This document shows positions 1-11,066 of a stretch of DNA of 64,000 nt, piece after piece. The notes below the pieces were generated by a model, which saw only the letters and a list, made by a program, of their open reading frames with translations, made no database searches and was not told the origin of the DNA. This stretch comes from Bacteroidales bacterium (GTDB lineage: Bacteria; Bacteroidota; Bacteroidia; Bacteroidales; F082): the NCBI GenBank assembly GCA_017539045.1, contig JAFYHS010000005.1, positions 1 to 64,000 of the forward strand, given 5' to 3'. How positions within the stretch are numbered: position 1 is the stretch's first letter; each line of letters opens with the position of its first letter. Made by a program: the position numbers and the translations under genes.

Positions 1-615
1 CTTTTCGGCATCTGCGCGACTGACAATGACTTCGGCAGCTGTCTGGCCATGCACGGCATAATGAATCTTGTTCTGCACCCGCTTGAAAAACTCAATGGAA
101 ATATCGGCTTGGGGATTGTAGTCGATGCTTGTGGCGTAAATATCCAGCACTTGCCTATAAAACACCTTCTCCGAAGAACGGATGTCGCGGATACGTTCGA
201 GAAGTTCTTTCCAATAACCACCTCCACCAAGGTTCTTCAGGCGGTTGTCGTCGAGGGCGAAGCCTTTGCGGATGTACTCTTTAAGTACGCCAGTGGCCCA
301 AATGCGGAATTTAGTGGCCTTGGCTGAATTAACACGATAGCCTACTGAAATAATGGCATCAAGGTTGTAGAACTGGGTTTGGTAGTTTTTGCCGTCTGCG
401 GCAGTTGCCGAGATTTTCTCGGTAACTGAATTTTTGTCTAATTCACCTGAAGCAAAAACATTCTTCAAATGAAGAGAAACATTGTCTGTTGAGCAATCAA
501 ACAATGCAGCCATAGCCTTCTGTGTGGCCCATAAGGATTCATCCTTAATAACCACTTGTATGACACCTTTTTCGTCAGGCAGTTGGTATAATATGTATTG
601 GGTTTCGTTGGTCAT
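1..615 (-). CDS. rhuM: RhuM-family protein, 3' end cut by window edge
   Basis: Reading the minus strand from the ATG at 615 gives 205 codons with no stop before base 1, so the gene is partial. The product starts MTNETQYILYQL and contains LWATQKAMAALF, followed by YNLDAIISVGYRVNS and RIWATGVLKEYI. These are hallmarks of the RhuM / DNA-binding BRO-like family described in the Salmonella SPI-3 island. The family is common in mobile and defence islands; its biochemical role is unsettled and the 'virulence' label is historical. The start codon overlaps the stop of the small remnant ORF upstream (ATGA), which suggests the two were once translationally coupled. The family call is sure; the function is not known. 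Confidence 0.85.
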   Translation of the reverse strand, partial: MTNETQYILYQLPDEKGVIQVVIKDESLWATQKAMAALFDCSTDNVSLHLKNVFASGELDKNSVTEKISATAADGKNYQTQFYNLDAIISVGYRVNSAKATKFRIWATGVLKEYIRKGFALDDNRLKNLGGGGYWKELLERIRDIRSSEKVFYRQVLDIYATSIDYNPQADISIEFFKRVQNKIHYAVHGQTAAEVIVSRADAEK

Positions 616-740
616 TGTCTAGTTTTTTGATATTTGGTATTATTCAATCTATCTGCGCCTTGCGCGTTGGCGAAACCGCTAATGTAGGCAAGGTATTTGT
701 CGTCCCACTGCTGCTTGTATTCTATTGTTTGGGTTTCCAT
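612..740 (-). pseudogene. Remnant of an AlbA_2 / Schlafen-like ATP-binding protein (42 aa)
   Basis: A 42-codon frame starts at the ATG at 740 and ends at a TGA (614-612) that overlaps the RhuM start. Its N-terminus, METQTIEYKQQW followed by DDKYLAYISGFANAQG, matches the opening of AlbA_2 (divergent AAA_4, Schlafen-like) proteins, which normally continue with a G-x-L-x-I-G-V-D strand. Here the match stops abruptly after NAQG and the frame runs through unrelated residues to the stop. An internal deletion that removed nearly all of the gene and joined its start to the RhuM start is the simplest reading. Full-length relatives are several hundred residues long. Whether the stub is still translated is unknown. 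Confidence 0.65.
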
Positions 741-802
741 ATTGCAATTCGTATCAGTAATATGTTTGTTTTGTTAGATGCTCTATAATGGGCCTCATCC
801 TT

Positions 803-2329
803 TTATAAAAACTCGTTTTTAACAAAAGTAACTTTTTTCTCTTTTATTGCACGAAACTCTCCAATAGGCAAATCTGTTTTCGGCAAAACCTCGTAAATAA
901 AAAGCCAATATCTATCCATGTCAACTATGAGACTCTTGGCTTTTTCTTTGAACTTTTTCTTTCCTTCTTTGATTTTGCCTTTTTCTTTAGTTGTTTTTAA
1001 ATAAGATAAAAGCATAAAAACACAATCCTCGCTTGCAAAGGAATCTTCAATATGATTATTTGATAAATCAAAGCCGTACTTTATTGCCCAGTATAAGGCA
1101 AAACTACAGGACTCATAAATACGCCTACTAACACCCACGTTATATACATCTTGGGCTATTTCTCTAATTGTTCCTTTTGAAATGCTGAAGGCATCAAAAA
1201 CAAATTCTTCTATCCAATGGACTAAATACGGATATAGACACACAAGATGATGAATAGTATTGATGTAATACGATAAGGCTCGTTTGCCCAAATATGTATT
1301 CGATATAGTTTTAATGGCATAAGAATAAATCGATTGATTATTTGTGCTCTTAGCCAAACTGATAACTAAATCTAGATATGCTTTTAATCTTTGAAACTTA
1401 AAAACTACTTTTTTGTCTTCTGTTAAATCGTTTCCAATATGATAACTATTTAATGCTCCTACCCAATCAGAAGTTGATGAGACAGGGAGTTTGATGATTT
1501 CCGTCTTTTTAGTATTTAAGGCTAATTCATATTTTTTGAGACTTGCATTTAAATCTAGCAAAAAGCGTTCTGCCTCATCATCCGAATTTACATAACATGT
1601 AAAATCATCAATGTTTCTAATAAAATTGTAATGTGGAGCCAAATCTTGATCAATGCGACATAAAACGAGTTCTGAAAGAAGATTTGAACTATGAGGTCCT
1701 ATTAGTAATCCATTTGTTTCTTCGTTTTTAGTATTTCGAACATGGAAATCAAGAACATTATACCACTTACTTTTATCTTCTTTGTTCTTTTTTGCTTCTT
1801 CTTTACCAACAATTGCCCAAGGAAGTGCGTGCGAATAGATACTAGGGAAACAATTTGAAATATCAGCACAGACTCTAACTCTTTTCATTATCTGAAGTTT
1901 GTCAAGGAACAACGATAAAGAATAGTCTTTGTCCGTGTAATGCTTATTCATTTCAAACAACTGTTTTTTATTTTTTAGTTTTTGAATATGAATTTGACTT
2001 ATCTTAAAACTGTGTGTTGAGGATGCTTCATTAAATACATTTCTCAATTCTTCCCAATTGTTTGAAATGCAATTACAAAGATTTGAATATGCAAAAGGGT
2101 TAGGAATAGATATTAATCTAGGGATGTTTGTATTTCTTGTCGTTTCATATCTAATATAATCACGCCCCTTTTGCTCAAATTTTGGGAAACCATTTGTTTT
2201 ACAATAATTGTAAAAAGCTTCACTCGATAAAACACCTGGTAACTTATCGGCAAACAATCCAAAACCAAGAAGACCTTCCAACAAATCGTCTTGGGATAAT
2301 TCATTCATATAATCATTATATGCCTTCAT
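803..2329 (-). CDS. Abi/UG (DRT-like) reverse transcriptase
   Basis: The 508-aa product has the order of reverse transcriptase motifs: RLISIPNPFAYSNL (residues 71-84), motif A VCADISNCFPSIY with Asp155/156, motif B TNGLLIGPHSSN (205-216), motif C IRNIDDF with Asp241-Asp242, and motif D LNTKKTEI. The catalytic aspartates are present, but the usual YxDD box reads NIDD. Motif B (GPHSSN) and the helical C-terminal part (about 330-508), in place of a group II intron thumb or maturase, point to the Abi/UG/DRT set of phage-defence enzymes, not retrons or introns. The gene lies downstream of a KAP-type NTPase and a small protein on the same strand; allowing for the NTPase frameshift the gap is about 60 bases. 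It is AT-rich compared with the core genes. The RT fold is sure; the precise DRT subgroup cannot be set without a tree. Confidence 0.85.
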   Translation of the reverse strand: MKAYNDYMNELSQDDLLEGLLGFGLFADKLPGVLSSEAFYNYCKTNGFPKFEQKGRDYIRYETTRNTNIPRLISIPNPFAYSNLCNCISNNWEELRNVFNEASSTHSFKISQIHIQKLKNKKQLFEMNKHYTDKDYSLSLFLDKLQIMKRVRVCADISNCFPSIYSHALPWAIVGKEEAKKNKEDKSKWYNVLDFHVRNTKNEETNGLLIGPHSSNLLSELVLCRIDQDLAPHYNFIRNIDDFTCYVNSDDEAERFLLDLNASLKKYELALNTKKTEIIKLPVSSTSDWVGALNSYHIGNDLTEDKKVVFKFQRLKAYLDLVISLAKSTNNQSIYSYAIKTISNTYLGKRALSYYINTIHHLVCLYPYLVHWIEEFVFDAFSISKGTIREIAQDVYNVGVSRRIYESCSFALYWAIKYGFDLSNNHIEDSFASEDCVFMLLSYLKTTKEKGKIKEGKKKFKEKAKSLIVDMDRYWLFIYEVLPKTDLPIGEFRAIKEKKVTFVKNEFL

Positions 2330-2390
2330 GGTATGTTGAATTTGATTATGTAAAACACCAAATAATTGGTGAATGATACTTGATTAAGTG

Positions 2391-2543
2391 TTATTTCGAA
2401 ACAAATCTTTTCAATACTATTGGCCAATCATCAAAATTATTATGTGACTCTTCACTTCCATTGAATATGTACGGTTGAATACTATTGTTTTTATATAGGC
2501 ACGTTTCTGCATCGTAAATCCCCAAACCTACTCTATATTGCCT
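2391..2543 (-). other. Out-of-frame continuation of the KAP NTPase C-terminus
   Basis: After the A6 run at 2543-2548 the -1 frame stays open to a TAA at 2391-2393. It encodes a protein-like segment of 50 residues that includes RVGLGIYD and FDDWPIVL and ends KRFVSK. It has no ATG of its own near its beginning. Restoring one A (A7) would fuse it in frame to the NTPase after LEKK. It is either the result of a one-base deletion (biological or a sequencing/assembly error) or is reached by slippage on the two AAA codons. Confidence 0.65.
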
Positions 2544-3796
2544 TTTTTCTCTAGAACATTTTTACAATAAAAATAATCAGTGGTATTGTTTCCAAATAAC
2601 AACATCAAATACCCAATTATATATTCAACCATCTCACTTCCAATTTCATCATATACATTTCTATACCCAGCGACCAAAAGAGTTTCATCTATGCCAATTC
2701 TTTTCATAATAATATACAACCTTAGCATTCCTAAATGAATCTGTTTATTACGGCAAATTGGGCGTTCTTTAATCTGACTATCAATGTCATCAAAAGAATC
2801 AACAATTATTCTAATGTTTTTTCCTAATAACACATCATTGGAAATGACATTTTCAATGTATTTAAGGGGTAGTTCTGTTATCTTGGCAGTCTTTTCTTGA
2901 ACAAACTTGCATCGTTCCTCTTCAAGCGAATACTTGAAAAGACCTTTCGAGGCAAATTTCTGGATGTATCCCTCAAAGTTTGTGTTTTCGCCATAAAAAT
3001 GCTCGAATATCCTCCTTGTGTTGTTATAATCCATTACAAACACAATATTGTCAAAATGGAACTTGTTGTAAAAGTATTTCCTGCTGTTTTCTATAAAATA
3101 TTTCTCATCTGTATCAAGATGGGCTGAAAAGACATTCATGATTCTAAACAGATGAGCAGGGTCTAATCTATCCATGTCCTCAATCAGCAAAACAATCCTC
3201 TTTTTAGTATGTTTCGTTTTATACTCATCGATACTGTCTTGTATTATTTTGGTTACTACATCTTCTTCAAGAATTGGAATCGTGTCTGCCTTGTTTAAAA
3301 ACTCTTCTAAAGCGTACGTTGATTTATATTTCTTCTTCAATCCAAAAACCTTATTTTTTAATTCCTTAAGCAGATTATTTAATGAAAGTGCAGCTAAAAC
3401 CCCTTTTGCAACTTCGGTTGACGAATGAAGTTGGCTAATGTATGACAACGTGCTTTCAGTAAGTCCCATGAAATTATTCTGAATATAGAATGCTAATGCT
3501 GTTTGGTCATCAATATCCAAATCCTCAGAAAGCATATTGTTGACCGTGATTTGAAATAGGACATCTCGTTTTATTAACTCAAATATGTCCTTATTTTCAA
3601 GTACCTGATAATTTATAGGGTGTAAAGTGATAAAGACAAAACTCCTATTCCGTTTTTTGATAAATTTTGATAAAAAATAGGTTTTCCCATCCCCAAACTT
3701 TGCAGAAAGAATGGTTCTTGGATGTGATTTCAAATGAAAACCAAATTCATTGATAGCATTATCGATAGGTATTTCAAATTCGGTCTTTTTTTTCAT
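2528..3796 (-). CDS. KAP-type P-loop NTPase, C-terminus frameshifted
   Basis: The 422-aa frame has a Walker A region SAKFGDGKT (residues 31-39), in which the first Gly of the classical GxxxxGKT is Ala32. A Walker B segment, IVLLIEDMDRLDP (201-213), is followed about 40 residues on by IVFVMDYNN. This is the KAP family pattern of STAND-like NTPases. No convincing transmembrane segment is seen, so it is probably soluble, unlike many KAP proteins. The ATG overlaps the TGA of the small upstream gene (4 bases), indicating translational coupling. The annotated stop lies just after a run of six A; the -1 frame beyond it reads as ordinary protein for about 50 more residues, so an intact allele would be about 468 aa. 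KAP genes in prokaryotes are known to suffer frequent disruption. The partner reverse transcriptase follows. Confidence 0.8.
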   Translation of the reverse strand: MKKKTEFEIPIDNAINEFGFHLKSHPRTILSAKFGDGKTYFLSKFIKKRNRSFVFITLHPINYQVLENKDIFELIKRDVLFQITVNNMLSEDLDIDDQTALAFYIQNNFMGLTESTLSYISQLHSSTEVAKGVLAALSLNNLLKELKNKVFGLKKKYKSTYALEEFLNKADTIPILEEDVVTKIIQDSIDEYKTKHTKKRIVLLIEDMDRLDPAHLFRIMNVFSAHLDTDEKYFIENSRKYFYNKFHFDNIVFVMDYNNTRRIFEHFYGENTNFEGYIQKFASKGLFKYSLEEERCKFVQEKTAKITELPLKYIENVISNDVLLGKNIRIIVDSFDDIDSQIKERPICRNKQIHLGMLRLYIIMKRIGIDETLLVAGYRNVYDEIGSEMVEYIIGYLMLLFGNNTTDYFYCKNVLEKKGNIE

Positions 3797-3996
3797 ACAA
3801 TCATTTCTTTTACTGCGTAATAAGATTCTTTAACGGATATGGAATACAAGCAACTCCCTCCATTTCTGTCGCTTTTTACTCCAATATGGATAACTGTGTG
3901 CTCTGAAGACACACTTATAGAGGCTATCCAATCAACATTGATAAGAATAGGTTTGCCATTATTGACAGAATCATGTAGTTCCACAAATCTTGCCAT
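3793..3996 (-). CDS. Small FlbD-like protein, first gene of the KAP-RT operon
   Basis: A 67-aa protein beginning MARFVELHDSVNNGKPILIN. The pattern (short basic/hydrophobic start, xPILINVDWIASIS, a variable strand, then SISVKESYYAVKEMI) resembles the small beta-rich FlbD-like proteins (L-x-G-x-x-I-x-x-N-x-x-x-I, ending in VKES), although the link is by eye only. The stop overlaps the start of the NTPase gene by four bases, so the two are very likely co-translated. It is the first gene of the three-gene unit and could be a regulator, scaffold or phage sensor for the NTPase and reverse transcriptase; nothing in the sequence settles this. Confidence 0.6.
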   Translation of the reverse strand: MARFVELHDSVNNGKPILINVDWIASISVSSEHTVIHIGVKSDRNGGSCLYSISVKESYYAVKEMIV

Positions 3997-4051
3997 GTTT
4001 TATTAATCTCCCAAAGTAAAATGTTTACTTCTCAATATTATCGTCGATTCT

Positions 4052-4828
4052 TCAAATTCCAACAATTACATCCGCATATTCTCTCCACCCATTTGCTGTT
4101 TTATAAGCCTCTACAGATGACATTGGAACACTTATTTTTTGAATAAACCTACCTGAATAGACATTATTTCCTAATTCAGGAGGATTTAAAGCCATACATG
4201 TGATAGTAGTTATAACATTGGGATTTATTGTTTCAAAAAACAATGCAAATGCTAAGTCGTCAATTCTATTGGTTGTACTTGGCAAGAAAACATCTGTTAA
4301 TGACTCACAATCATAGAATGCCCATGAGCCGAAAGATCGAACATTATCACCTTTAATCCCAGTCAGATTACGACATCCCAAAAAGGCACATCTGTCAACA
4401 GATGTTACAGATTTTGGAAGGTGAACATAAGTAACTAAATCACAATCATTAAAAGCCTTGTATGCTATAGCAACAACTGAATAAACAGTGCCCAGATGTG
4501 CAACACTTTCAGGAACAAACACCTCACCCCTATACTTATATACTTGGCTTGGATTATCTTGGTAAAAAGACGCTCCATTCACCATTGCAACCTCTGTAGA
4601 AGAAAGGAGTGCAAAATACATTTTGGATCCATCTTCAAAAACTGCCTCAATATACACCGTACCATCATGTTGAACTTCCGAGGTAGAAACAATTGCTGGA
4701 TTTTCAGGGGTATTACCGCCATTATTGGGTTCATCAGGTTTATTGCATCCAGTAAACCAAACTGCCACAACAAACAATATCGATAATGTTACTTTTAATA
4801 GTTTATTCATGTCTATATTCATTTTCAA
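4052..4828 (-). CDS. BspA-type leucine-rich-repeat lipoprotein
   Basis: A 258-aa secreted protein. Its N-terminus is a lipoprotein signal (LLKVTLSILFVVAVWFTGC) and the cysteine at about residue 28 would be lipidated; the likelier start is the Met before NKLLK, because MKMNID precedes it. After a Pro/Asn-rich linker it has LRR_5 / Treponema-type repeats with the characteristic AFxxCxxLxxVxLPxSVTSV pattern (for example HLPKSVTSVDRCAFLGC, then WAFYDCESLTDVFLPST), and it ends in a VPMSSVEAYKTANGW segment typical of BspA-like proteins. Such proteins face the surface or periplasm and bind ligands or host proteins in related species. It may be unrelated to the defence genes below it. A TATCTTTG promoter box lies at 4838-4845. 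Confidence 0.85.
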   Translation of the reverse strand: MKMNIDMNKLLKVTLSILFVVAVWFTGCNKPDEPNNGGNTPENPAIVSTSEVQHDGTVYIEAVFEDGSKMYFALLSSTEVAMVNGASFYQDNPSQVYKYRGEVFVPESVAHLGTVYSVVAIAYKAFNDCDLVTYVHLPKSVTSVDRCAFLGCRNLTGIKGDNVRSFGSWAFYDCESLTDVFLPSTTNRIDDLAFALFFETINPNVITTITCMALNPPELGNNVYSGRFIQKISVPMSSVEAYKTANGWREYADVIVGI

Positions 4829-4837
4829 TTATTCGTG

Positions 4838-4845
4838 CAAAGATA
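4838..4845 (-). promoter_or_regulatory. TATCTTTG -7 box for the LRR lipoprotein
   Basis: TATCTTTG on the minus strand fits the Bacteroidota -7 consensus TAnnTTTG. It lies about 10-20 bases upstream of the possible start codons of the LRR lipoprotein. A CTTG at 4863-4866 could be a poor -33 element. Confidence 0.5.
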
Positions 4846-4887
4846 CATAATTTGAAAGAAAACAAGAAGTTCTTTTGATATTTATCG

Positions 4888-4895
4888 TACTTTTG
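4888..4895 (+). promoter_or_regulatory. TACTTTTG -7 box for the prolyl oligopeptidase gene
   Basis: TACTTTTG matches TAnnTTTG about 43 bases upstream of the ATG at 4938. No good TTTG element is seen at the expected distance, so the call rests on the -7 box alone. The box would place transcription start downstream of the upstream Met at 4875, which supports the start at 4938. Confidence 0.4.
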
Positions 4896-4937
4896 TCCCC
4901 AACAATCTTTGAATCTTTAAATCTTAAATCCTTAATA

Positions 4938-7082
4938 ATGAAAAAACTCACCTTTTTGATTATGGGCAGTATCATCACCCTTTTCGGCTGCAACCAACAG
5001 CCGCAACGCTATTCCGTCAAGGCTTATCCCGAGACGCGAAAAGACACCACCGTCGTTGACGACTATTTCGGCACGAAGGTCGCCGACCCGTACCGTTGGC
5101 TCGAAAACGACACCTCCGCCGAGACCGCGAAATGGGTCAAGGAGCAGAACGAAGTCACGCAAGACTATCTGAGCCACATCCCCTTCCGCAGCGCCCTCAA
5201 GGACCGCCTGACGCAACTCGTGGACTATGAGCGCTATGGCATGCCTTCGAAGGAACACGGCCGCTACATCTACTCGAAGAACGACGGCCTCCAGAACCAA
5301 AGCGTCATCTATATGCAGGAGACGCTCGACGGCGAGCCCACCGTCTTGTTAGATCCCAACAAACTATCCGATGACGGCACCGTCTCGTTGGGTGGCATCA
5401 GCTTCTCCAACGACGGCAAATACATGGCCTACACCATCCAACGCAGCGGCTCCGACTGGGTTGAAATCTACGTGAAGGACATGGACACACTCGAACTTCT
5501 CCCCGACCACATCGAATGGGCCAAGTTCACGGGTGCATCCTGGTACAAGGACGGCTTCTTCTATGCCGCCTACGACCGCCCCGAAGCTGGCAAGGAGTTC
5601 AGCAACGTGAACGAAAACCACAAGATCTACTACCACAAACTCGGCACGCCACAAGAGCAAGACGAGCTCTTCTACTCCAACCCTGCCCAGCCGCGCTATT
5701 TCCACCAAGTGGACCTCACCGAAGACGAGCATTACATGTTCCTCTTCGAGAGTGGCCAAGGCGCAGGCAGCACGCTGTGGATCCGCGACATGCAAGACCC
5801 AAAGGGTAAGTTCGTCCAAATCGCCGATGACATGGACTACCAGTATGGTCCCATCGACGTCATCAACGACACGCTGTATATCTTCACCAATTACAACGCA
5901 CCCAAGGGCCGCATCTGCAAAGTGTCGGCCAAGACCCCGCAGATGGAAAACTGGGTCGACGTGATTCCCGAAAGCGATAACGTAATCGCTGGCATCAGCC
6001 TCGCCAAGGGCAAGATGATCGTCACCTACGACAAGGACGCCGCCAACCACGCCTACGTCTACACCATGGACGGCCAACAACTCCACGAGATTGCCCTGCC
6101 GACCTACGGCGCCGTCGGTTTCAGCAGCGAATACAAGGAGCCCGAAGTGTTCTATGCCTTCACCTCATTCGTCTTCCCGACCACGATTTACCAATACAAC
6201 ATCGATGATAACACTTCCACCGTGTTCCGTGCCCCTGCCATCGACTTCAAGTCGGACGACTACGTCACCGAGCAGGTCTTCGTCACCTCGAAGGACGGCA
6301 CCAAGGTCCCGATGTTCCTTACCTACAAGAAAGGCTTGCAGAAAGACGGCACCAACCCGACCTTCCTGTATGGCTACGGCGGCTTCAACATCACCCTCAA
6401 CCCAGGCTTCAGCACCTCGCGTCTGCCCTTCATCGAGAACGGCGGCATCTATGCCCAAATGAACCTGCGTGGTGGCAACGAATACGGTGAGGATTGGCAC
6501 CTGGCTGGCACCAAGTTGCAGAAGCAGAACGTCTTCGACGACTGCATCGCCTGCGCCGAATACCTTATCAATAATGGCTACACTTCGCCGAAGTACTTGG
6601 CTCTAAATGGTGGCTCCAACGGCGGTCTGCTCGTCGGTGCTGTAGTCAACCAGCGTCCCGACCTCTTCGCTGTGGCCGTGCCGCAAGTCGGCGTGATGGA
6701 CATGTTGCGCTACCACCTCTTCACCATCGGCTGGAACTGGGCCAGCGACTATGGCACCAGCGAGGACGACGAGGCCATGTTCAAGGCCCTGTATGCTTAC
6801 TCGCCGCTGCACACCATCAAGAGCGGCGAAGATGTGCACTATCCCGCCATCATGGTCACCACTGCCGACCACGACGACCGTGTGGTGCCCGCCCACTCGT
6901 TCAAGTATGCGGCCACCTTGCAGGCTGCCCAGACTGGCGACCAGCCCAAGATCATCCGCATCGACACCAAGGCCGGTCACGGCGGTGGCAAGCCCATCTC
7001 CAAGGTCCTGGAAGAACAGGCTGACATCTATTCGTTCATCCTGTATAACATGGGATTGACCTATCCGAAGGAGGCGAAATAA
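4938..7082 (+). CDS. Prolyl oligopeptidase family (S9A) lipoprotein
   Basis: A 714-aa serine peptidase. The start at 4938 gives a lipoprotein signal MKKLTFLIMGSIITLFGC; an upstream in-frame Met at 4875 would spoil it. The N-terminal helix and seven-bladed propeller (DPYRWLENDTS) are followed by the alpha/beta hydrolase domain. The catalytic triad is visible: Ser560 in LNGGSNGG, Asp in DHDDRVVP (646/647) and His681 in KAGHGGG. Family members cleave short proline-containing peptides; the lipid anchor places this one in the periplasm or at the outer membrane. Length is typical of the family. A strong hairpin terminator follows the gene. Confidence 0.95.
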   Translation: MKKLTFLIMGSIITLFGCNQQPQRYSVKAYPETRKDTTVVDDYFGTKVADPYRWLENDTSAETAKWVKEQNEVTQDYLSHIPFRSALKDRLTQLVDYERYGMPSKEHGRYIYSKNDGLQNQSVIYMQETLDGEPTVLLDPNKLSDDGTVSLGGISFSNDGKYMAYTIQRSGSDWVEIYVKDMDTLELLPDHIEWAKFTGASWYKDGFFYAAYDRPEAGKEFSNVNENHKIYYHKLGTPQEQDELFYSNPAQPRYFHQVDLTEDEHYMFLFESGQGAGSTLWIRDMQDPKGKFVQIADDMDYQYGPIDVINDTLYIFTNYNAPKGRICKVSAKTPQMENWVDVIPESDNVIAGISLAKGKMIVTYDKDAANHAYVYTMDGQQLHEIALPTYGAVGFSSEYKEPEVFYAFTSFVFPTTIYQYNIDDNTSTVFRAPAIDFKSDDYVTEQVFVTSKDGTKVPMFLTYKKGLQKDGTNPTFLYGYGGFNITLNPGFSTSRLPFIENGGIYAQMNLRGGNEYGEDWHLAGTKLQKQNVFDDCIACAEYLINNGYTSPKYLALNGGSNGGLLVGAVVNQRPDLFAVAVPQVGVMDMLRYHLFTIGWNWASDYGTSEDDEAMFKALYAYSPLHTIKSGEDVHYPAIMVTTADHDDRVVPAHSFKYAATLQAAQTGDQPKIIRIDTKAGHGGGKPISKVLEEQADIYSFILYNMGLTYPKEAK

Positions 7083-7167: not shown

Positions 7168-7656
7168 TTACCAACAGTACTTCACCGCATACCAAATGGC
7201 CACGAACTGCTCGATGGTGACATTGTCGGAAAGGTTGAAATCGACATCCGAAGTATAGCTGGATGTGTTTTTATACACTTTGAGGCCTTGCTTGTTGGCA
7301 AAGACATCGGAGGTATAACTCGAATTGCCTTTGTAGAGTTTGCCGTCCCTAATCGTGAAAACCACATCGGAAGAATACGAAGACGACCCTTTGTAGACTT
7401 TGCCATCCCTGATGGTGAACAAGATATCACTACTATAATAGGAATTGCCCTTGTACACCTTGTTGTCGTCAATTCGGCAAAGGACATCGGACGAGTACAA
7501 GGAATTACCTTTATACACTTTATTGTCCTTTAAATTGCAGATTACGTCGCTGCTGTAAGAGGAGTTGCCCTTATACACTTTCACTTGGGCGAAACTGCTG
7601 ATAAAAGCCCAACAGAAGCATACGGTCAACAGGGTTCTCTGATAGTGTTTTTTCAT
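7168..7656 (-). CDS. Secreted six-repeat protein (beta-flower-like)
   Basis: A 162-aa protein with a signal peptide (ending about SSFAQ, residue 24) followed by six tandem repeats of about 19 residues with the pattern KVYKGNSxYSSDVxxxIxDN. The repeats are also nearly identical at the DNA level, so the array could expand and contract by recombination. A 27-residue tail without the repeat follows (NLSDNVTIEQFVAIWYAVKYCW region). The regular alternation of hydrophobic residues suggests short beta hairpins closing into a ring, like the small beta-flower domains of Bacteroidota; that fold is an inference. The function is unknown. It is likely periplasmic or on the surface. Confidence 0.7.
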   Translation of the reverse strand: MKKHYQRTLLTVCFCWAFISSFAQVKVYKGNSSYSSDVICNLKDNKVYKGNSLYSSDVLCRIDDNKVYKGNSYYSSDILFTIRDGKVYKGSSSYSSDVVFTIRDGKLYKGNSSYTSDVFANKQGLKVYKNTSSYTSDVDFNLSDNVTIEQFVAIWYAVKYCW

Positions 7657-7725: not shown

Positions 7726-8688
7726 TTATTTTTCTGCCGTCCCCAAAACAAACTCTTCAATGTTCCCTCTGGCCTCGGTCATACCCAACTTCTTGCGGAT
7801 ACTGGTGCGTGCTTTACCGATCATCGCGGATGATACATCCAAAATGTCAGCAACTTCCTTCACTGAAAATGGCATCATCGATAATATGCAGACCTTGAAT
7901 TCACTATCGGTCATAGCAGGTTGGTTACTCTTGATGCGTTGAACCACATCGGGATAAACCTTGTTGTATTCTTCAAAGATAACATCATAGGCAGAGTCGG
8001 CTTGTCCGCAGACACATGATTTCAGCTTTTGGAAGGACGGCTTGTCAATATCCTTGTTCTCGCCAATCAAGAAAATCTTGTAAACCATCATTACCTTTCG
8101 GAAGAGGTTATCGCGATTGGTCTCAGCTAATGCCTCGGATTCTTGTTGCAAACGGGTAATATCCAGGTTCAACTCAGCTATCGTAGCACGTTTTTGAGTG
8201 GCACGATACAAGAGGAAAAACACCAACGCGACCGCCACAACCAATACCAACGAAATGATGAAAAGCATTTTGCGCCGGCGCAGAAAAACTGAAATCATAT
8301 TTTCGCTATGGTCCAGGTCGCCATTCAAGGTTGAAATGGTGGTCTGTACTTTTTCCATCAGTTTGATGTCCTCGCTCGACCTGGCCGTGATAATGGCCTC
8401 ATTCAAAGCCGCCATGGCCGAGTCGAAGTTGTTTTGTTGCCAATAGACGCAACCGCTGTAAAGGGCCGACAAGGTTTTCATCTCGGCATCGTCAGTGAGA
8501 TTGAAATAACGCCGTGCCTGAAAAATGGAGGTGTCCTGCGAGATGTCCTCTCCCCTGCTGAATTTGCCTTCGATCTCCAACACCGTCCGTTCCATGTTGT
8601 CCATGTCGGACTTCACATTGCAAGCTGCCAATAGGCATATCAGCACAAAGGCCAACCAACATCTTGATTTGTATAGCAAATTCAGCAT
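7726..8688 (-). CDS. Membrane-anchored TPR/HTH regulator
   Basis: A 320-aa protein. A lipobox-like N-terminus (LICLLAAC) is followed by a short helical repeat region with TPR character (RRYFNLTDDAEM, then YSGCVYWQQNNFDSAMAALN), a single transmembrane segment at about 139-161 (MLFIISLVLVVAVALVFFLL), a coiled-coil stretch, and a C-terminal helix-turn-helix (SDSEF-like start, then VKEVADILDVSSAMIGKARTSI). Bacteroidota use this plan, with a periplasmic sensor linked to a cytoplasmic LuxR-like HTH, for one-component membrane regulators. Its upstream neighbour on the same strand is a TonB-type receptor ending 64 bases before, so a role in controlling that receptor or its envelope stimulus is plausible. 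Confidence 0.75.
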   Translation of the reverse strand: MLNLLYKSRCWLAFVLICLLAACNVKSDMDNMERTVLEIEGKFSRGEDISQDTSIFQARRYFNLTDDAEMKTLSALYSGCVYWQQNNFDSAMAALNEAIITARSSEDIKLMEKVQTTISTLNGDLDHSENMISVFLRRRKMLFIISLVLVVAVALVFFLLYRATQKRATIAELNLDITRLQQESEALAETNRDNLFRKVMMVYKIFLIGENKDIDKPSFQKLKSCVCGQADSAYDVIFEEYNKVYPDVVQRIKSNQPAMTDSEFKVCILSMMPFSVKEVADILDVSSAMIGKARTSIRKKLGMTEARGNIEEFVLGTAEK

Positions 8689-8752
8689 CGTCTCAACAAT
8701 TAAACAATTGACTTCGTCGAATTATCATTTCAACAACGCAACAATTCAACAA

Positions 8753-10969
8753 TTATTGCCCCGCCGCTTCCCCACCATTTTGGGCCTCATTCTCCAGTTC
8801 GATGTTACCGAAACGCAATGTAAAACCTGCACACACACAAGAAGAATTGTATCTTGATGTTTCTGAAACCGTTACCGTTGGGCTATCAATATATGTGTCT
8901 TGCTTCAACAAACCAAACAAATCGTAGCCGTTGACAAACACTGACAACTTATGATCGAAGAAATCGGCACGCATACCGCAGTCGACGGAATAATTGGCAC
9001 CCTTCTTCCAAAACAGCGTCTGGGTTGGAGAGTTGTAGTAAGCCGAGGCATGCACTTCCAGACGGTCCCATAGCTTGGTCCAAAGGTTCAGTCGAAAACT
9101 GTAGCAAAGCATCTCACTCGGTTCCAAAGCATCATCGGTCTTGATGTAAGATTCATAAAGGTTGGCATAAAACCGCAAATTGAACATCCCGTTCGGACGA
9201 TACATCATGTTGAACTCACCACCCGCATTATACGACCTGCCTACATTGACCGGCCAGTTGAAAGAGACCACCCTGCCATAATGCTCATGGTAAGCCGCAT
9301 CAGTTATCTTGTTGATTTCATTTTGTTTTCCTTTATAATAACCAGTCAAACCAACAGAACCAAAATCGTCCCAATACTTCGTCCAACTTGCCTCAATGTT
9401 GTGGGTGAAAACTTGTTTCAGCTTAGGATTGCCCGTAGCATAGGATTCCTCATCGAATTTGATAAAAGGACTCAGTTGCTCTGCGTAAGGATTCTGGATC
9501 CTCATGGAATAACTCAACTTGAAGTTGTGCATCGACTGGGTGTGATACGACAAATGCAGCGATGGCAAAGGATAGAAATAATAAGCTGTAGAATCATAAT
9601 TTGGAGCGTCGGGATAGACAATTCCCGTCCTATAATACCTTAAACTCAAAGTAGGCTGCACAGTAAAATTGCCGAAACGGTGCCGCACCTGGAAATAGCC
9701 GCCCAAATGATGATCGACCTGACGGAATCGATACGACATTACCGAGTCGTGCACATATACGCCATTGGCCAGACTGTCCAATGGGCTGCACTCGTTTTTT
9801 CCTTCCCAACCGGCATTGATGCCCATGCCAAATTCGCCATTCTTGGAATAAGGTAAATTGTAATCCACGCGTGCATTGATAGGGATGTTGGTCGAGACAT
9901 AGTCCATCACGAATGCCCTTTCATACGGAGACGGCAAGGTGTAAATCTTGTGATAATCAATAGGAAGCGCCGAACGGGTAATACTTCCATTCATGCGTAA
10001 AGTAAGGTTATGTCCTTCTTCATCGAATTTGTGCTGATAGTTCAACCCGTAAGGCAAGAAGAGATAGTTTGAATTCGATTTGTTCTCGATGGAGTATTTG
10101 TACTCGCCCGATTGTTCAATGTATTCAACGCGTTCGCGCTCCTGTCTAACCTCCGAAGGCCCAAATGAATCCCAAAACATGGCATACAAAGAGAATGTGT
10201 TCATCTTGTTAGGCGTGTAAGTCAAGTTCAGGTTGACCCCTGGACTGTAAGTAGTGTAATTGTTGTACATGCTACTCTTCAAATGGCTGGTCAAGACTTG
10301 GTTTCCTTCTTCATCTTCACCATACAAATCCTTCTCAGAATGCGCTTCGCCTTTACCATGATACCAATAGGTGTTCGCGTAGGCATTCACCGTCCACTTA
10401 TCGTTTTTCCAGACGTAGGAAGCCCACGGCATCACGTAGGGTTGCGAAGAAACATTGGTGCCAAAGCAAAAGAACTCGTTTCGCTTGATTTTGGTGTTCA
10501 TCACGATGTTGATGATGCCATCGGCGGTGGTGGCATAACGCGCCGATGGGTTAGTGATGACTTCTATGCGGTCGATGGCGTTGGCGGGCAAGGTCTGGAT
10601 GTAGGCCTTGAGGTTTTCTTCCGTGAGGTTGGAAGGCTGGTCATTGATCCAAATTTCAACGGAAGAAGTCCCACGCAAGGTGATGTTGCCTTCCACATCC
10701 ACGCTCACGCCGGGAGCATTCTGCAAGGCATCAGAGGCCACGCCACCTTGCACGGTCGGGTCGTCTGAAACTTGATACAATGTCTTCTCGCCTTCGACGG
10801 AAAACAATGGTCTTTCCGCCGTGATGGTGATGCCTTCAAGCAGCAAAGTGTCTACCGCCATCTGCAGGCTGTCGGCTTTCGGTTTGACTTCAGGAATTTC
10901 GACTTGGGCAAAAGACACTGTGTTAAACATCGCAAAGGCGACGGTGAGGAATAGGTTTCTTGTTTTCAT
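8753..10969 (-). CDS. TonB-dependent receptor-like outer-membrane beta-barrel protein
   Basis: About 738 aa from the Met at 10969 (MKTRNLFLTVAFAMFNTVSFAQ signal peptide; an earlier Met four codons upstream is less likely). The plug domain reads DALQNAPGVSVDVEGNITLR, SSVEIWINDQPSNLTEE, then RIEVITNPSARY, followed by a long outer-membrane beta-barrel (OMP_b-brl_3 type). It lacks the N-terminal carboxypeptidase-regulatory-like domain that its paralogue at 38579 has. The substrate is unknown. It ends in a glutamine-rich tail in place of the classic terminal aromatic residue. A TACTTTTG box lies 30 bases upstream of the start. Confidence 0.85.
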   Translation of the reverse strand: MKTRNLFLTVAFAMFNTVSFAQVEIPEVKPKADSLQMAVDTLLLEGITITAERPLFSVEGEKTLYQVSDDPTVQGGVASDALQNAPGVSVDVEGNITLRGTSSVEIWINDQPSNLTEENLKAYIQTLPANAIDRIEVITNPSARYATTADGIINIVMNTKIKRNEFFCFGTNVSSQPYVMPWASYVWKNDKWTVNAYANTYWYHGKGEAHSEKDLYGEDEEGNQVLTSHLKSSMYNNYTTYSPGVNLNLTYTPNKMNTFSLYAMFWDSFGPSEVRQERERVEYIEQSGEYKYSIENKSNSNYLFLPYGLNYQHKFDEEGHNLTLRMNGSITRSALPIDYHKIYTLPSPYERAFVMDYVSTNIPINARVDYNLPYSKNGEFGMGINAGWEGKNECSPLDSLANGVYVHDSVMSYRFRQVDHHLGGYFQVRHRFGNFTVQPTLSLRYYRTGIVYPDAPNYDSTAYYFYPLPSLHLSYHTQSMHNFKLSYSMRIQNPYAEQLSPFIKFDEESYATGNPKLKQVFTHNIEASWTKYWDDFGSVGLTGYYKGKQNEINKITDAAYHEHYGRVVSFNWPVNVGRSYNAGGEFNMMYRPNGMFNLRFYANLYESYIKTDDALEPSEMLCYSFRLNLWTKLWDRLEVHASAYYNSPTQTLFWKKGANYSVDCGMRADFFDHKLSVFVNGYDLFGLLKQDTYIDSPTVTVSETSRYNSSCVCAGFTLRFGNIELENEAQNGGEAAGQ

Positions 10970-10998
10970 TGCATGGTACATTTTGAAGTTTTACCATG

Positions 10999-11006
10999 CA
11001 AAAGTA
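10999..11006 (-). promoter_or_regulatory. TACTTTTG -7 box for the TonB-type receptor
   Basis: Minus-strand TACTTTTG fits TAnnTTTG and lies 30 bases upstream of the ATG at 10969, just after the terminator hairpin of the preceding operon. Confidence 0.5.
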
Positions 11007-11012
11007 TAGTGA

Positions 11013-11066
11013 AAAAACAGGCTTTCCGCAAGCCTAAGCCTCGTGTAGAGATATTTGCGGAAAGCC
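11013..11066 (-). terminator. Terminator of the phosphoesterase operon
   Basis: A perfect 12-bp inverted repeat (TTGCGGAAAGCC at 11055-11066 against GGCTTTCCGCAA at 11020-11031) has a loop of 23 bases and is followed, in the minus direction, by CTGTTTTTTC. It sits 54 bases beyond the stop of the metallophosphoesterase gene. Confidence 0.8.

What the first reader, a model, noticed from the sequence alone, without database searches (positions are those of the whole stretch)
803..3996. Candidate undescribed defence operon: small protein, KAP NTPase and reverse transcriptase
Three same-strand genes form one unit: a 67-aa protein overlaps by four bases a KAP-type P-loop NTPase, which is followed about 60 bases on (once its frameshift is allowed for) by an Abi/UG-type reverse transcriptase. 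The sequence shows the RT and NTPase motifs directly. Known DRT systems pair an RT with ncRNA, nitrilase or a second RT; a STAND-like KAP NTPase plus a small protein is not an arrangement I recognise from the named DRT types. RhuM and an AlbA_2 remnant beside it fit a defence island. The role in phage defence is inference.
Basis: partly seen in the sequence, partly recalled or inferred. Interest (0 to 1): 0.87.

Follow-up and report, generated by a model that had tools for sequence, protein, structure and literature searches.

The report
DRT4-type reverse transcriptase beside KAP NTPase
A known kind of phage-defence reverse transcriptase (DRT4) sits in a Bacteroidales bacterium behind a small gene and an ATP-using enzyme; the three genes were found together in only one close relative, so this looks like a rare composite cassette and not yet a demonstrated new defence system.

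Summary
In detail: a 67-aa gene, a KAP-like P-loop NTPase (frameshifted near its end here) and a 508-aa reverse transcriptase lie in that order on the minus strand. The RT is a full-length match to DRT4, described in print as a single-gene defence system. The KAP and small gene belong to a separate family of Bacteroidota genes mostly found without an RT. Within the flanks held, an RT of this group stood beside the KAP in 1 of 80 KAP loci, 0 of 16 other RT loci from a phylum sample (4 of them close Drt4 matches), and 2 of 99 genomes of the genus. The two cases are the window's genome and RUG245, where the same three genes form an intact 3.2-kb block (84% nt identity) at another site, with unrelated flanks and purifying selection on all three. 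So the trio is a real but narrowly distributed cassette. Most likely the RT works as DRT4 and the NTPase pair is a second, co-inherited module. A coupled DRT4 subtype is not excluded: one AbiK-class RT beside a KAP gene is already in print. New variant of a known kind, moderate interest.

The parts
3793..3996 (-). small protein, 67 aa; predicted five strands and a C-terminal helix
   Evidence: homologues directly upstream of KAP genes in L029, L018, L036, L037, L042
2528..3796 (-). KAP-like P-loop NTPase, in-frame part (422 aa); its start overlaps the last four bases of the small gene
2391..2525 (-). C-terminal remainder of the KAP gene, out of frame here, in frame in RUG245; still dN/dS 0.12
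2330..2390 (-). 61-base KAP-RT gap (98 bases in RUG245); no shared RNA structure seen
803..2329 (-). reverse transcriptase of the DRT4 type, 508 aa, open frame
612..740 (-). context: 42-aa remnant of a Schlafen AlbA_2 gene, outside the conserved block
1..615 (-). context: RhuM family gene cut off by the contig start; a different RhuM (50% aa identity) follows the RT in RUG245

Best explanation
A DRT4-type reverse transcriptase has been joined, in one genus of Bacteroidales, to a small-protein + KAP-NTPase gene pair that exists without it elsewhere, and the three genes are kept together as a low-GC cassette in defence-type surroundings. The RT most likely protects as characterised DRT4 does: it makes untemplated, protein-primed single-stranded DNA that becomes toxic when a phage factor stabilises it. 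The small protein and NTPase most likely form their own module (an NTP-driven sensing or assembly step) that is co-inherited with the RT and not required by it. Shown here: gene identities, the cassette's conservation, purifying selection, separate existence of both halves elsewhere. Inferred: DRT4 chemistry of this RT, a defence role of the NTPase module, co-transcription, independence of the two halves.
For: RT: best Drt4 profiles 613 and 525 bits over nearly the whole protein, Drt6 287; 171 bits to solved UG15-type chains over residues 53-485; catalytic Asps kept. Its closest relatives whose upstream side can be read (L125, L158, L187) have no KAP there. KAP homologues stand without an RT of this group in 79 of 80 genome loci, in 6 of 8 KAP-bearing genomes of the genus and in 15 of 15 viral-contig loci, each within the flanks held. 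Small+KAP pairs without RT: L018, L036, L037, L042. The trio as a block in RUG245 at another site, selection on all three genes, 32% GC against 51% for the window beyond its first 5 kb.
Against: Two loci at different sites carry all three genes with near-exact borders and similar constraint, which an accidental neighbourhood explains less well. An AbiK-class RT with a KAP_NTPase neighbour is listed in PMC8934634 (passages seen), so RT-KAP pairing may have arisen more than once. Nothing was tested for activity.
Confidence: 0.6

Rival explanations
1. A coupled DRT4 subtype: the KAP NTPase, with the small protein as partner, senses infection or assembles with the RT and gates its DNA synthesis, so that all three genes make one system (ATPase + effector logic as in RADAR).
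For: Gene order kept in two loci with unrelated flanks; all three genes under purifying selection, dS 0.56-0.88; RdrA of RADAR ranks first in the fold search with the KAP model (E=1.1e-4); an AbiK-class RT with a KAP_NTPase neighbour is in print.
Against: Seen in one genus only; the nearest RTs and nearest KAPs that could be read live apart. Described DRT4 works as a single gene (passages of PMC13213688 and PMC13314766). The RdrA match is weak (TM-score by query length 0.33 for the top chain) and followed closely by ORC and other AAA+ proteins.
Confidence: 0.25
2. Chance neighbours inherited together: a defence-island deposit whose parts have no functional link, now decaying in the window's genome.
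For: Frameshift in KAP; AlbA_2 remnant next door; both genomes belong to one genus, so one joining event explains both cases.
Against: The out-of-frame KAP tail still has dN/dS 0.12 and the RUG245 copy is open, so the frameshift is recent or an assembly error; the flanks differ while the block stayed whole.
Confidence: 0.13

Closest known systems
DRT4 defence reverse transcriptase (UG15; the equation of the two names is recalled)
   Same: full-length profile match, catalytic Asps, about 500 aa, no ncRNA found
   Different: small and KAP genes directly upstream in both loci of this clade; DRT4 is described as single-gene
KAP family P-loop NTPases (PF07693)
   Same: Walker A and B; KAP_NTPase is the best Pfam match
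   Different: score under the curated cut-off; no membrane-like helix between Walker A and B in the window or RUG245 proteins; no PDB sequence match for the profile
RADAR RdrA NTPase
   Same: first-ranked fold match of the RUG245 KAP model
   Different: TM-scores by query length 0.24-0.39, 9-11% identity; an RdrB-like partner was not searched for
AbiK-class RT with KAP_NTPase neighbour (AUJ27137.1, CP015444.1, table in PMC8934634)
   Same: a UG/Abi-group RT next to a KAP NTPase
   Different: another RT class; the record is not held here, so gene order and kinship of that KAP could not be checked

Membership tests
DRT4 | best and full-length match to Drt4 profiles among RT classes | tested here: met
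   PDLC02178 613 bits (residues 1-507), PDLC03752 525; Drt6 287, UG30 208, AbiK 145. Two other Drt4 profiles score 243 and 224, below Drt6
DRT4 | RT catalytic aspartates | tested here: met
   D156, D241, D242 invariant in 7 RTs; the same motifs align in 9vdo
DRT4 | no dedicated ncRNA | tested here: met
   no Rfam match in window 1-6500; the conserved block ends with the genes; the gap hairpin of the window (z -2.64) is not matched in L029 (z 0.02). An RNA inside coding sequence or of an undescribed family is not excluded
DRT4 | single-gene organisation | tested here: inconclusive
   small and KAP genes upstream in both loci of this clade, absent beside the nearest readable relatives; whether the RT needs them is untested
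DRT4 | untemplated Tyr-primed ssDNA synthesis, hexamer, phage-protein trigger | not testable with these tools
   described in passages of PMC13213688, PMC13314766, PMC13174585; primary paper not held
KAP_NTPase (PF07693) | score over the curated cut-off (20 bits) | tested here: not met
   19.2 bits window, 16.2 bits L029
KAP_NTPase (PF07693) | Walker A and Walker B motifs | tested here: met
KAP_NTPase (PF07693) | membrane helices inserted between Walker A and B (recalled feature of classical KAP proteins) | tested here: not met
   highest 19-aa hydropathy mean 1.08 (window) and 1.24 (L029), both from residue 384, outside that interval; 10 of 50 relatives reach 1.6 somewhere
FlbD-like small proteins (PF06289) | Pfam match | tested here: not met
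   no match for the window protein; E=0.045, below cut-off, for homologue L036, none for L037

The most novel reading that the evidence does not exclude
The trio is a distinct three-gene DRT4 subtype in which a KAP NTPase and its small partner sense infection and switch on untemplated DNA synthesis by the RT, making DRT4 an NTPase-gated system in this lineage.
Probability: 0.22. Interest if true: 0.6.

Novelty: new variant of a known kind. Interest (0 to 1): 0.36.

Why it matters
The descriptions seen here treat DRT4 as a lone RT triggered through a phage protein. A natural lineage in which it is tied to an NTPase module allows a direct test of whether such RTs can come under host-encoded control. 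It also points to an uncharacterised KAP-like NTPase family, with or without its small partner, that turns up among capsule-type genes, beside TIR/NACHT genes and in viral contigs.

Tried and rejected
Single-protein scans of viral contigs with RT and KAP confirmed no relative; profile scans gave 4 RT and 15 KAP loci, none with both in the flanks held. blastn of the trio against phages: no match. PDB sequence search with the KAP profile: none. Fold search with the small-protein model: best E=0.06 (Sac7d/Sso7d), not interpretable. Plasmid RT hits (208 records, best 31.6% identity) were not classed, save L020 (Pseudoalteromonas), which falls in the wider Drt4 set of the tree and has no KAP by HMM; five other plasmid neighbourhoods (Pediococcus, Latilactobacillus, E. 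coli, Rhizobium, Enterococcus) list no gene named as KAP, in gene tables that are incomplete. The RUG245 integration site could not be found in the window's genome: its flanking efflux gene gave only a 43-base match (that assembly is 81% complete). A programmed frameshift in KAP was set aside, since the RUG245 gene is open. A tree run failed on a labelling error and was repeated with two rows fewer, L019 and L063. The general KAP profile PF07693 missed the KAPs of this family in G776 and G780, so it is a control for other KAP types only. Literature searches. Of the papers listed, passages of PMC13213688, PMC13314766, PMC13174585, PMC8934634 and PMC9122126 were seen; the rest only as listings, among them PMC10907252, which holds the terms KAP NTPase and reverse transcriptase and was not opened. 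In what was seen, only the AbiK row of PMC8934634 pairs an RT of this group with a KAP gene.

Full report
WHAT IS THERE. The window starts at the edge of contig C4 of a 2.36-Mb draft genome, 81% complete. On the minus strand lie, in order of reading, a 67-aa gene (3793-3996), a KAP-like P-loop NTPase (2528-3796) whose start overlaps the previous gene by four bases, and a 508-aa reverse transcriptase (803-2329). The NTPase frame ends at 2528; its last part continues out of frame at 2391-2525, and the RT begins 61 bases later. Downstream are a 42-aa AlbA_2 remnant and a RhuM gene cut by the contig start; upstream is a BspA-type leucine-rich-repeat protein. The trio has 32% GC against 51% for the window beyond its first 5 kb.

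IDENTITY OF THE RT. The best PADLOC Drt4 profile matches the whole protein (613 bits, E=1.2e-184); the next named class, Drt6, scores 287, above two of the five Drt4 profiles that match (243 and 224). Among solved structures the best matches are RT chains, one set named UG15 (171 bits over residues 53-485); that UG15 is DRT4 is recalled. Motif-A Asp and both IDD Asps are invariant in seven aligned relatives. In a tree of 23 RTs the window and RUG245 proteins pair inside a supported group of five with L125, L158 and L166. Passages of PMC13213688 and PMC13314766 describe DRT4 as a single-gene, template-independent, Tyr-primed polymerase of random ssDNA whose product a phage protein stabilises; a passage of PMC13174585 counts DRT4 among hexameric RTs. 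The primary paper is not held.

IDENTITY OF THE OTHER TWO GENES. The NTPase has Walker A and B motifs conserved in 50 aligned relatives and matches Pfam KAP_NTPase just below the curated cut-off (19.2 bits). The model of the intact RUG245 copy (mean pLDDT 74) has RdrA of RADAR as first fold match, but weakly (E=1.1e-4, TM by query length 0.33), with ORC second. The small protein has homologues directly upstream of KAP genes in L029, L018 (a Segatella copri plasmid record), L036, L037 and L042, and a fragment overlapping the end of the KAP gene in L041. Its model is a small beta protein with one helix without a convincing fold match.

IS THE TRIO A UNIT? An RT of this group was found in 1 of the 80 loci, L029 of genome RUG245 (flanks up to 8 kb, shorter in some). 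There, bases 7790-11025 align to window 4007-810 over 3236 positions at 83.8% identity, and nothing else of that 17-kb locus aligns to the window at E<=1e-5. Its flanks are a type IIG restriction-methylation gene, a type II methyltransferase and a PDC-S05 gene upstream and a different RhuM (50% aa identity) downstream. The window's neighbouring peptidase gene has a 97% aa (91% nt) homologue in RUG245, on another contig and without the cassette beside it. Between the two copies dN/dS is 0.17 (small), 0.10 (KAP) and 0.12 (RT), and dS 0.56, 0.88 and 0.56, against dS 0.40 for the peptidase gene. One housekeeping gene is too few to tell separate acquisition from descent with rearrangement. The out-of-frame KAP tail still shows dN/dS 0.12, so the frameshift is recent or an assembly error.

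HOW GENERAL IS IT? In the 99 genomes of the genus that were searched, 7 have an RT match at E<=1e-3: three strong (the window's; G735, taken to be RUG245 from its contig length and gene content; G745 at 41%) and four weaker; 8 have a KAP match. Both lie side by side in 2. G745 has the RT and no match to this KAP; G776 and G780 have a KAP and a distant RT about 15 kb and 80 kb apart. Of 173 genomes of the family, 5 have an RT match at E<=1e-30; the two outside the genus have no KAP beside it (one, L187, is a partial RT with an internal stop at a contig end). Of 395 genomes sampled from the phylum, 17 match Drt4 at E<=1e-30, the window's own among them. None of the other 16 neighbourhoods holds a KAP of this family, but only 4 of the 16 match Drt4 at 460 bits or more, the rest being more distant RTs, and two (L133, L140) show under 400 bases upstream. 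A general KAP profile over 33 RT-bearing genomes gave matches in 31; comparing coordinates, only the two trios lie within 6 kb of the RT. That profile missed the KAPs of this family in G776 and G780, so it speaks for other KAP types only. In viral contigs, 4 RT and 15 KAP loci share no member; L166 ends too close to its RT to be read upstream. The KAP tree pairs the trio with L030 and L032, in which neither small gene nor RT was found. The RT was therefore most simply gained once, in the trio lineage.

MECHANISM. Most likely the RT acts as DRT4 does and the small+KAP pair is a second module carried along. A coupled, NTPase-gated subtype remains open: the cassette is whole in both genomes (but for the window's frameshift), and a KAP_NTPase neighbour of an AbiK-class RT (AUJ27137.1) is listed in a table of PMC8934634 (passages seen; record not held). 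No ncRNA was found: no Rfam match, and the KAP-RT gap differs in length (61 and 98 bases) and predicted structure between the two loci; the window gap alone folds better than shuffles (z -2.64).

VERDICT. Observation confirmed; interpretation partly supported. The RT is a known kind; the three-gene arrangement is real and rare in what could be searched, and was not seen described in the searches made (open-licence papers only, mostly seen as listings). New variant of a known kind.

Noticed in passing
L036 (7787-9407), L037 (7774-9359), L033, L039, L041: KAP NTPases of this family, some with the small gene, lie among capsule/O-antigen-type genes (judged by eye from translations, not by profile).
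   Followed up: partly
L018 366-7392; L162 3036-9098: In Segatella copri and in a genome of the window's genus (G776) a KAP of this family lies next to a TIR-like gene (over the Pfam cut-off in L162 only) and a large NACHT gene.
   Followed up: partly
L170-L184: Fifteen IMG/VR viral contigs carry a KAP NTPase of this family.
   Followed up: partly
L158 3259-6660: The G745 DRT4-like RT is followed without a gap by a gene with a weak DUF5677 match and then a PADLOC candidate PDC-S31 gene; another possible RT partner.
   Followed up: no
L161/L162 (G776 contig C3, about 47-69 kb): One region holds a UG/Abi-type RT, a classical KAP NTPase, a KAP of this family, TIR and NACHT genes.
   Followed up: partly
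window 7168-7656, minus strand: Secreted-looking protein made of similar repeats (VYKGNSSYSSDV-like units).
   Followed up: no
L035 5042-10747 (apparently the same contig as L163): Another KAP of this family lies between a RhuM-like gene split over two frames and a cytosine-methyltransferase-like gene (by eye).
   Followed up: no
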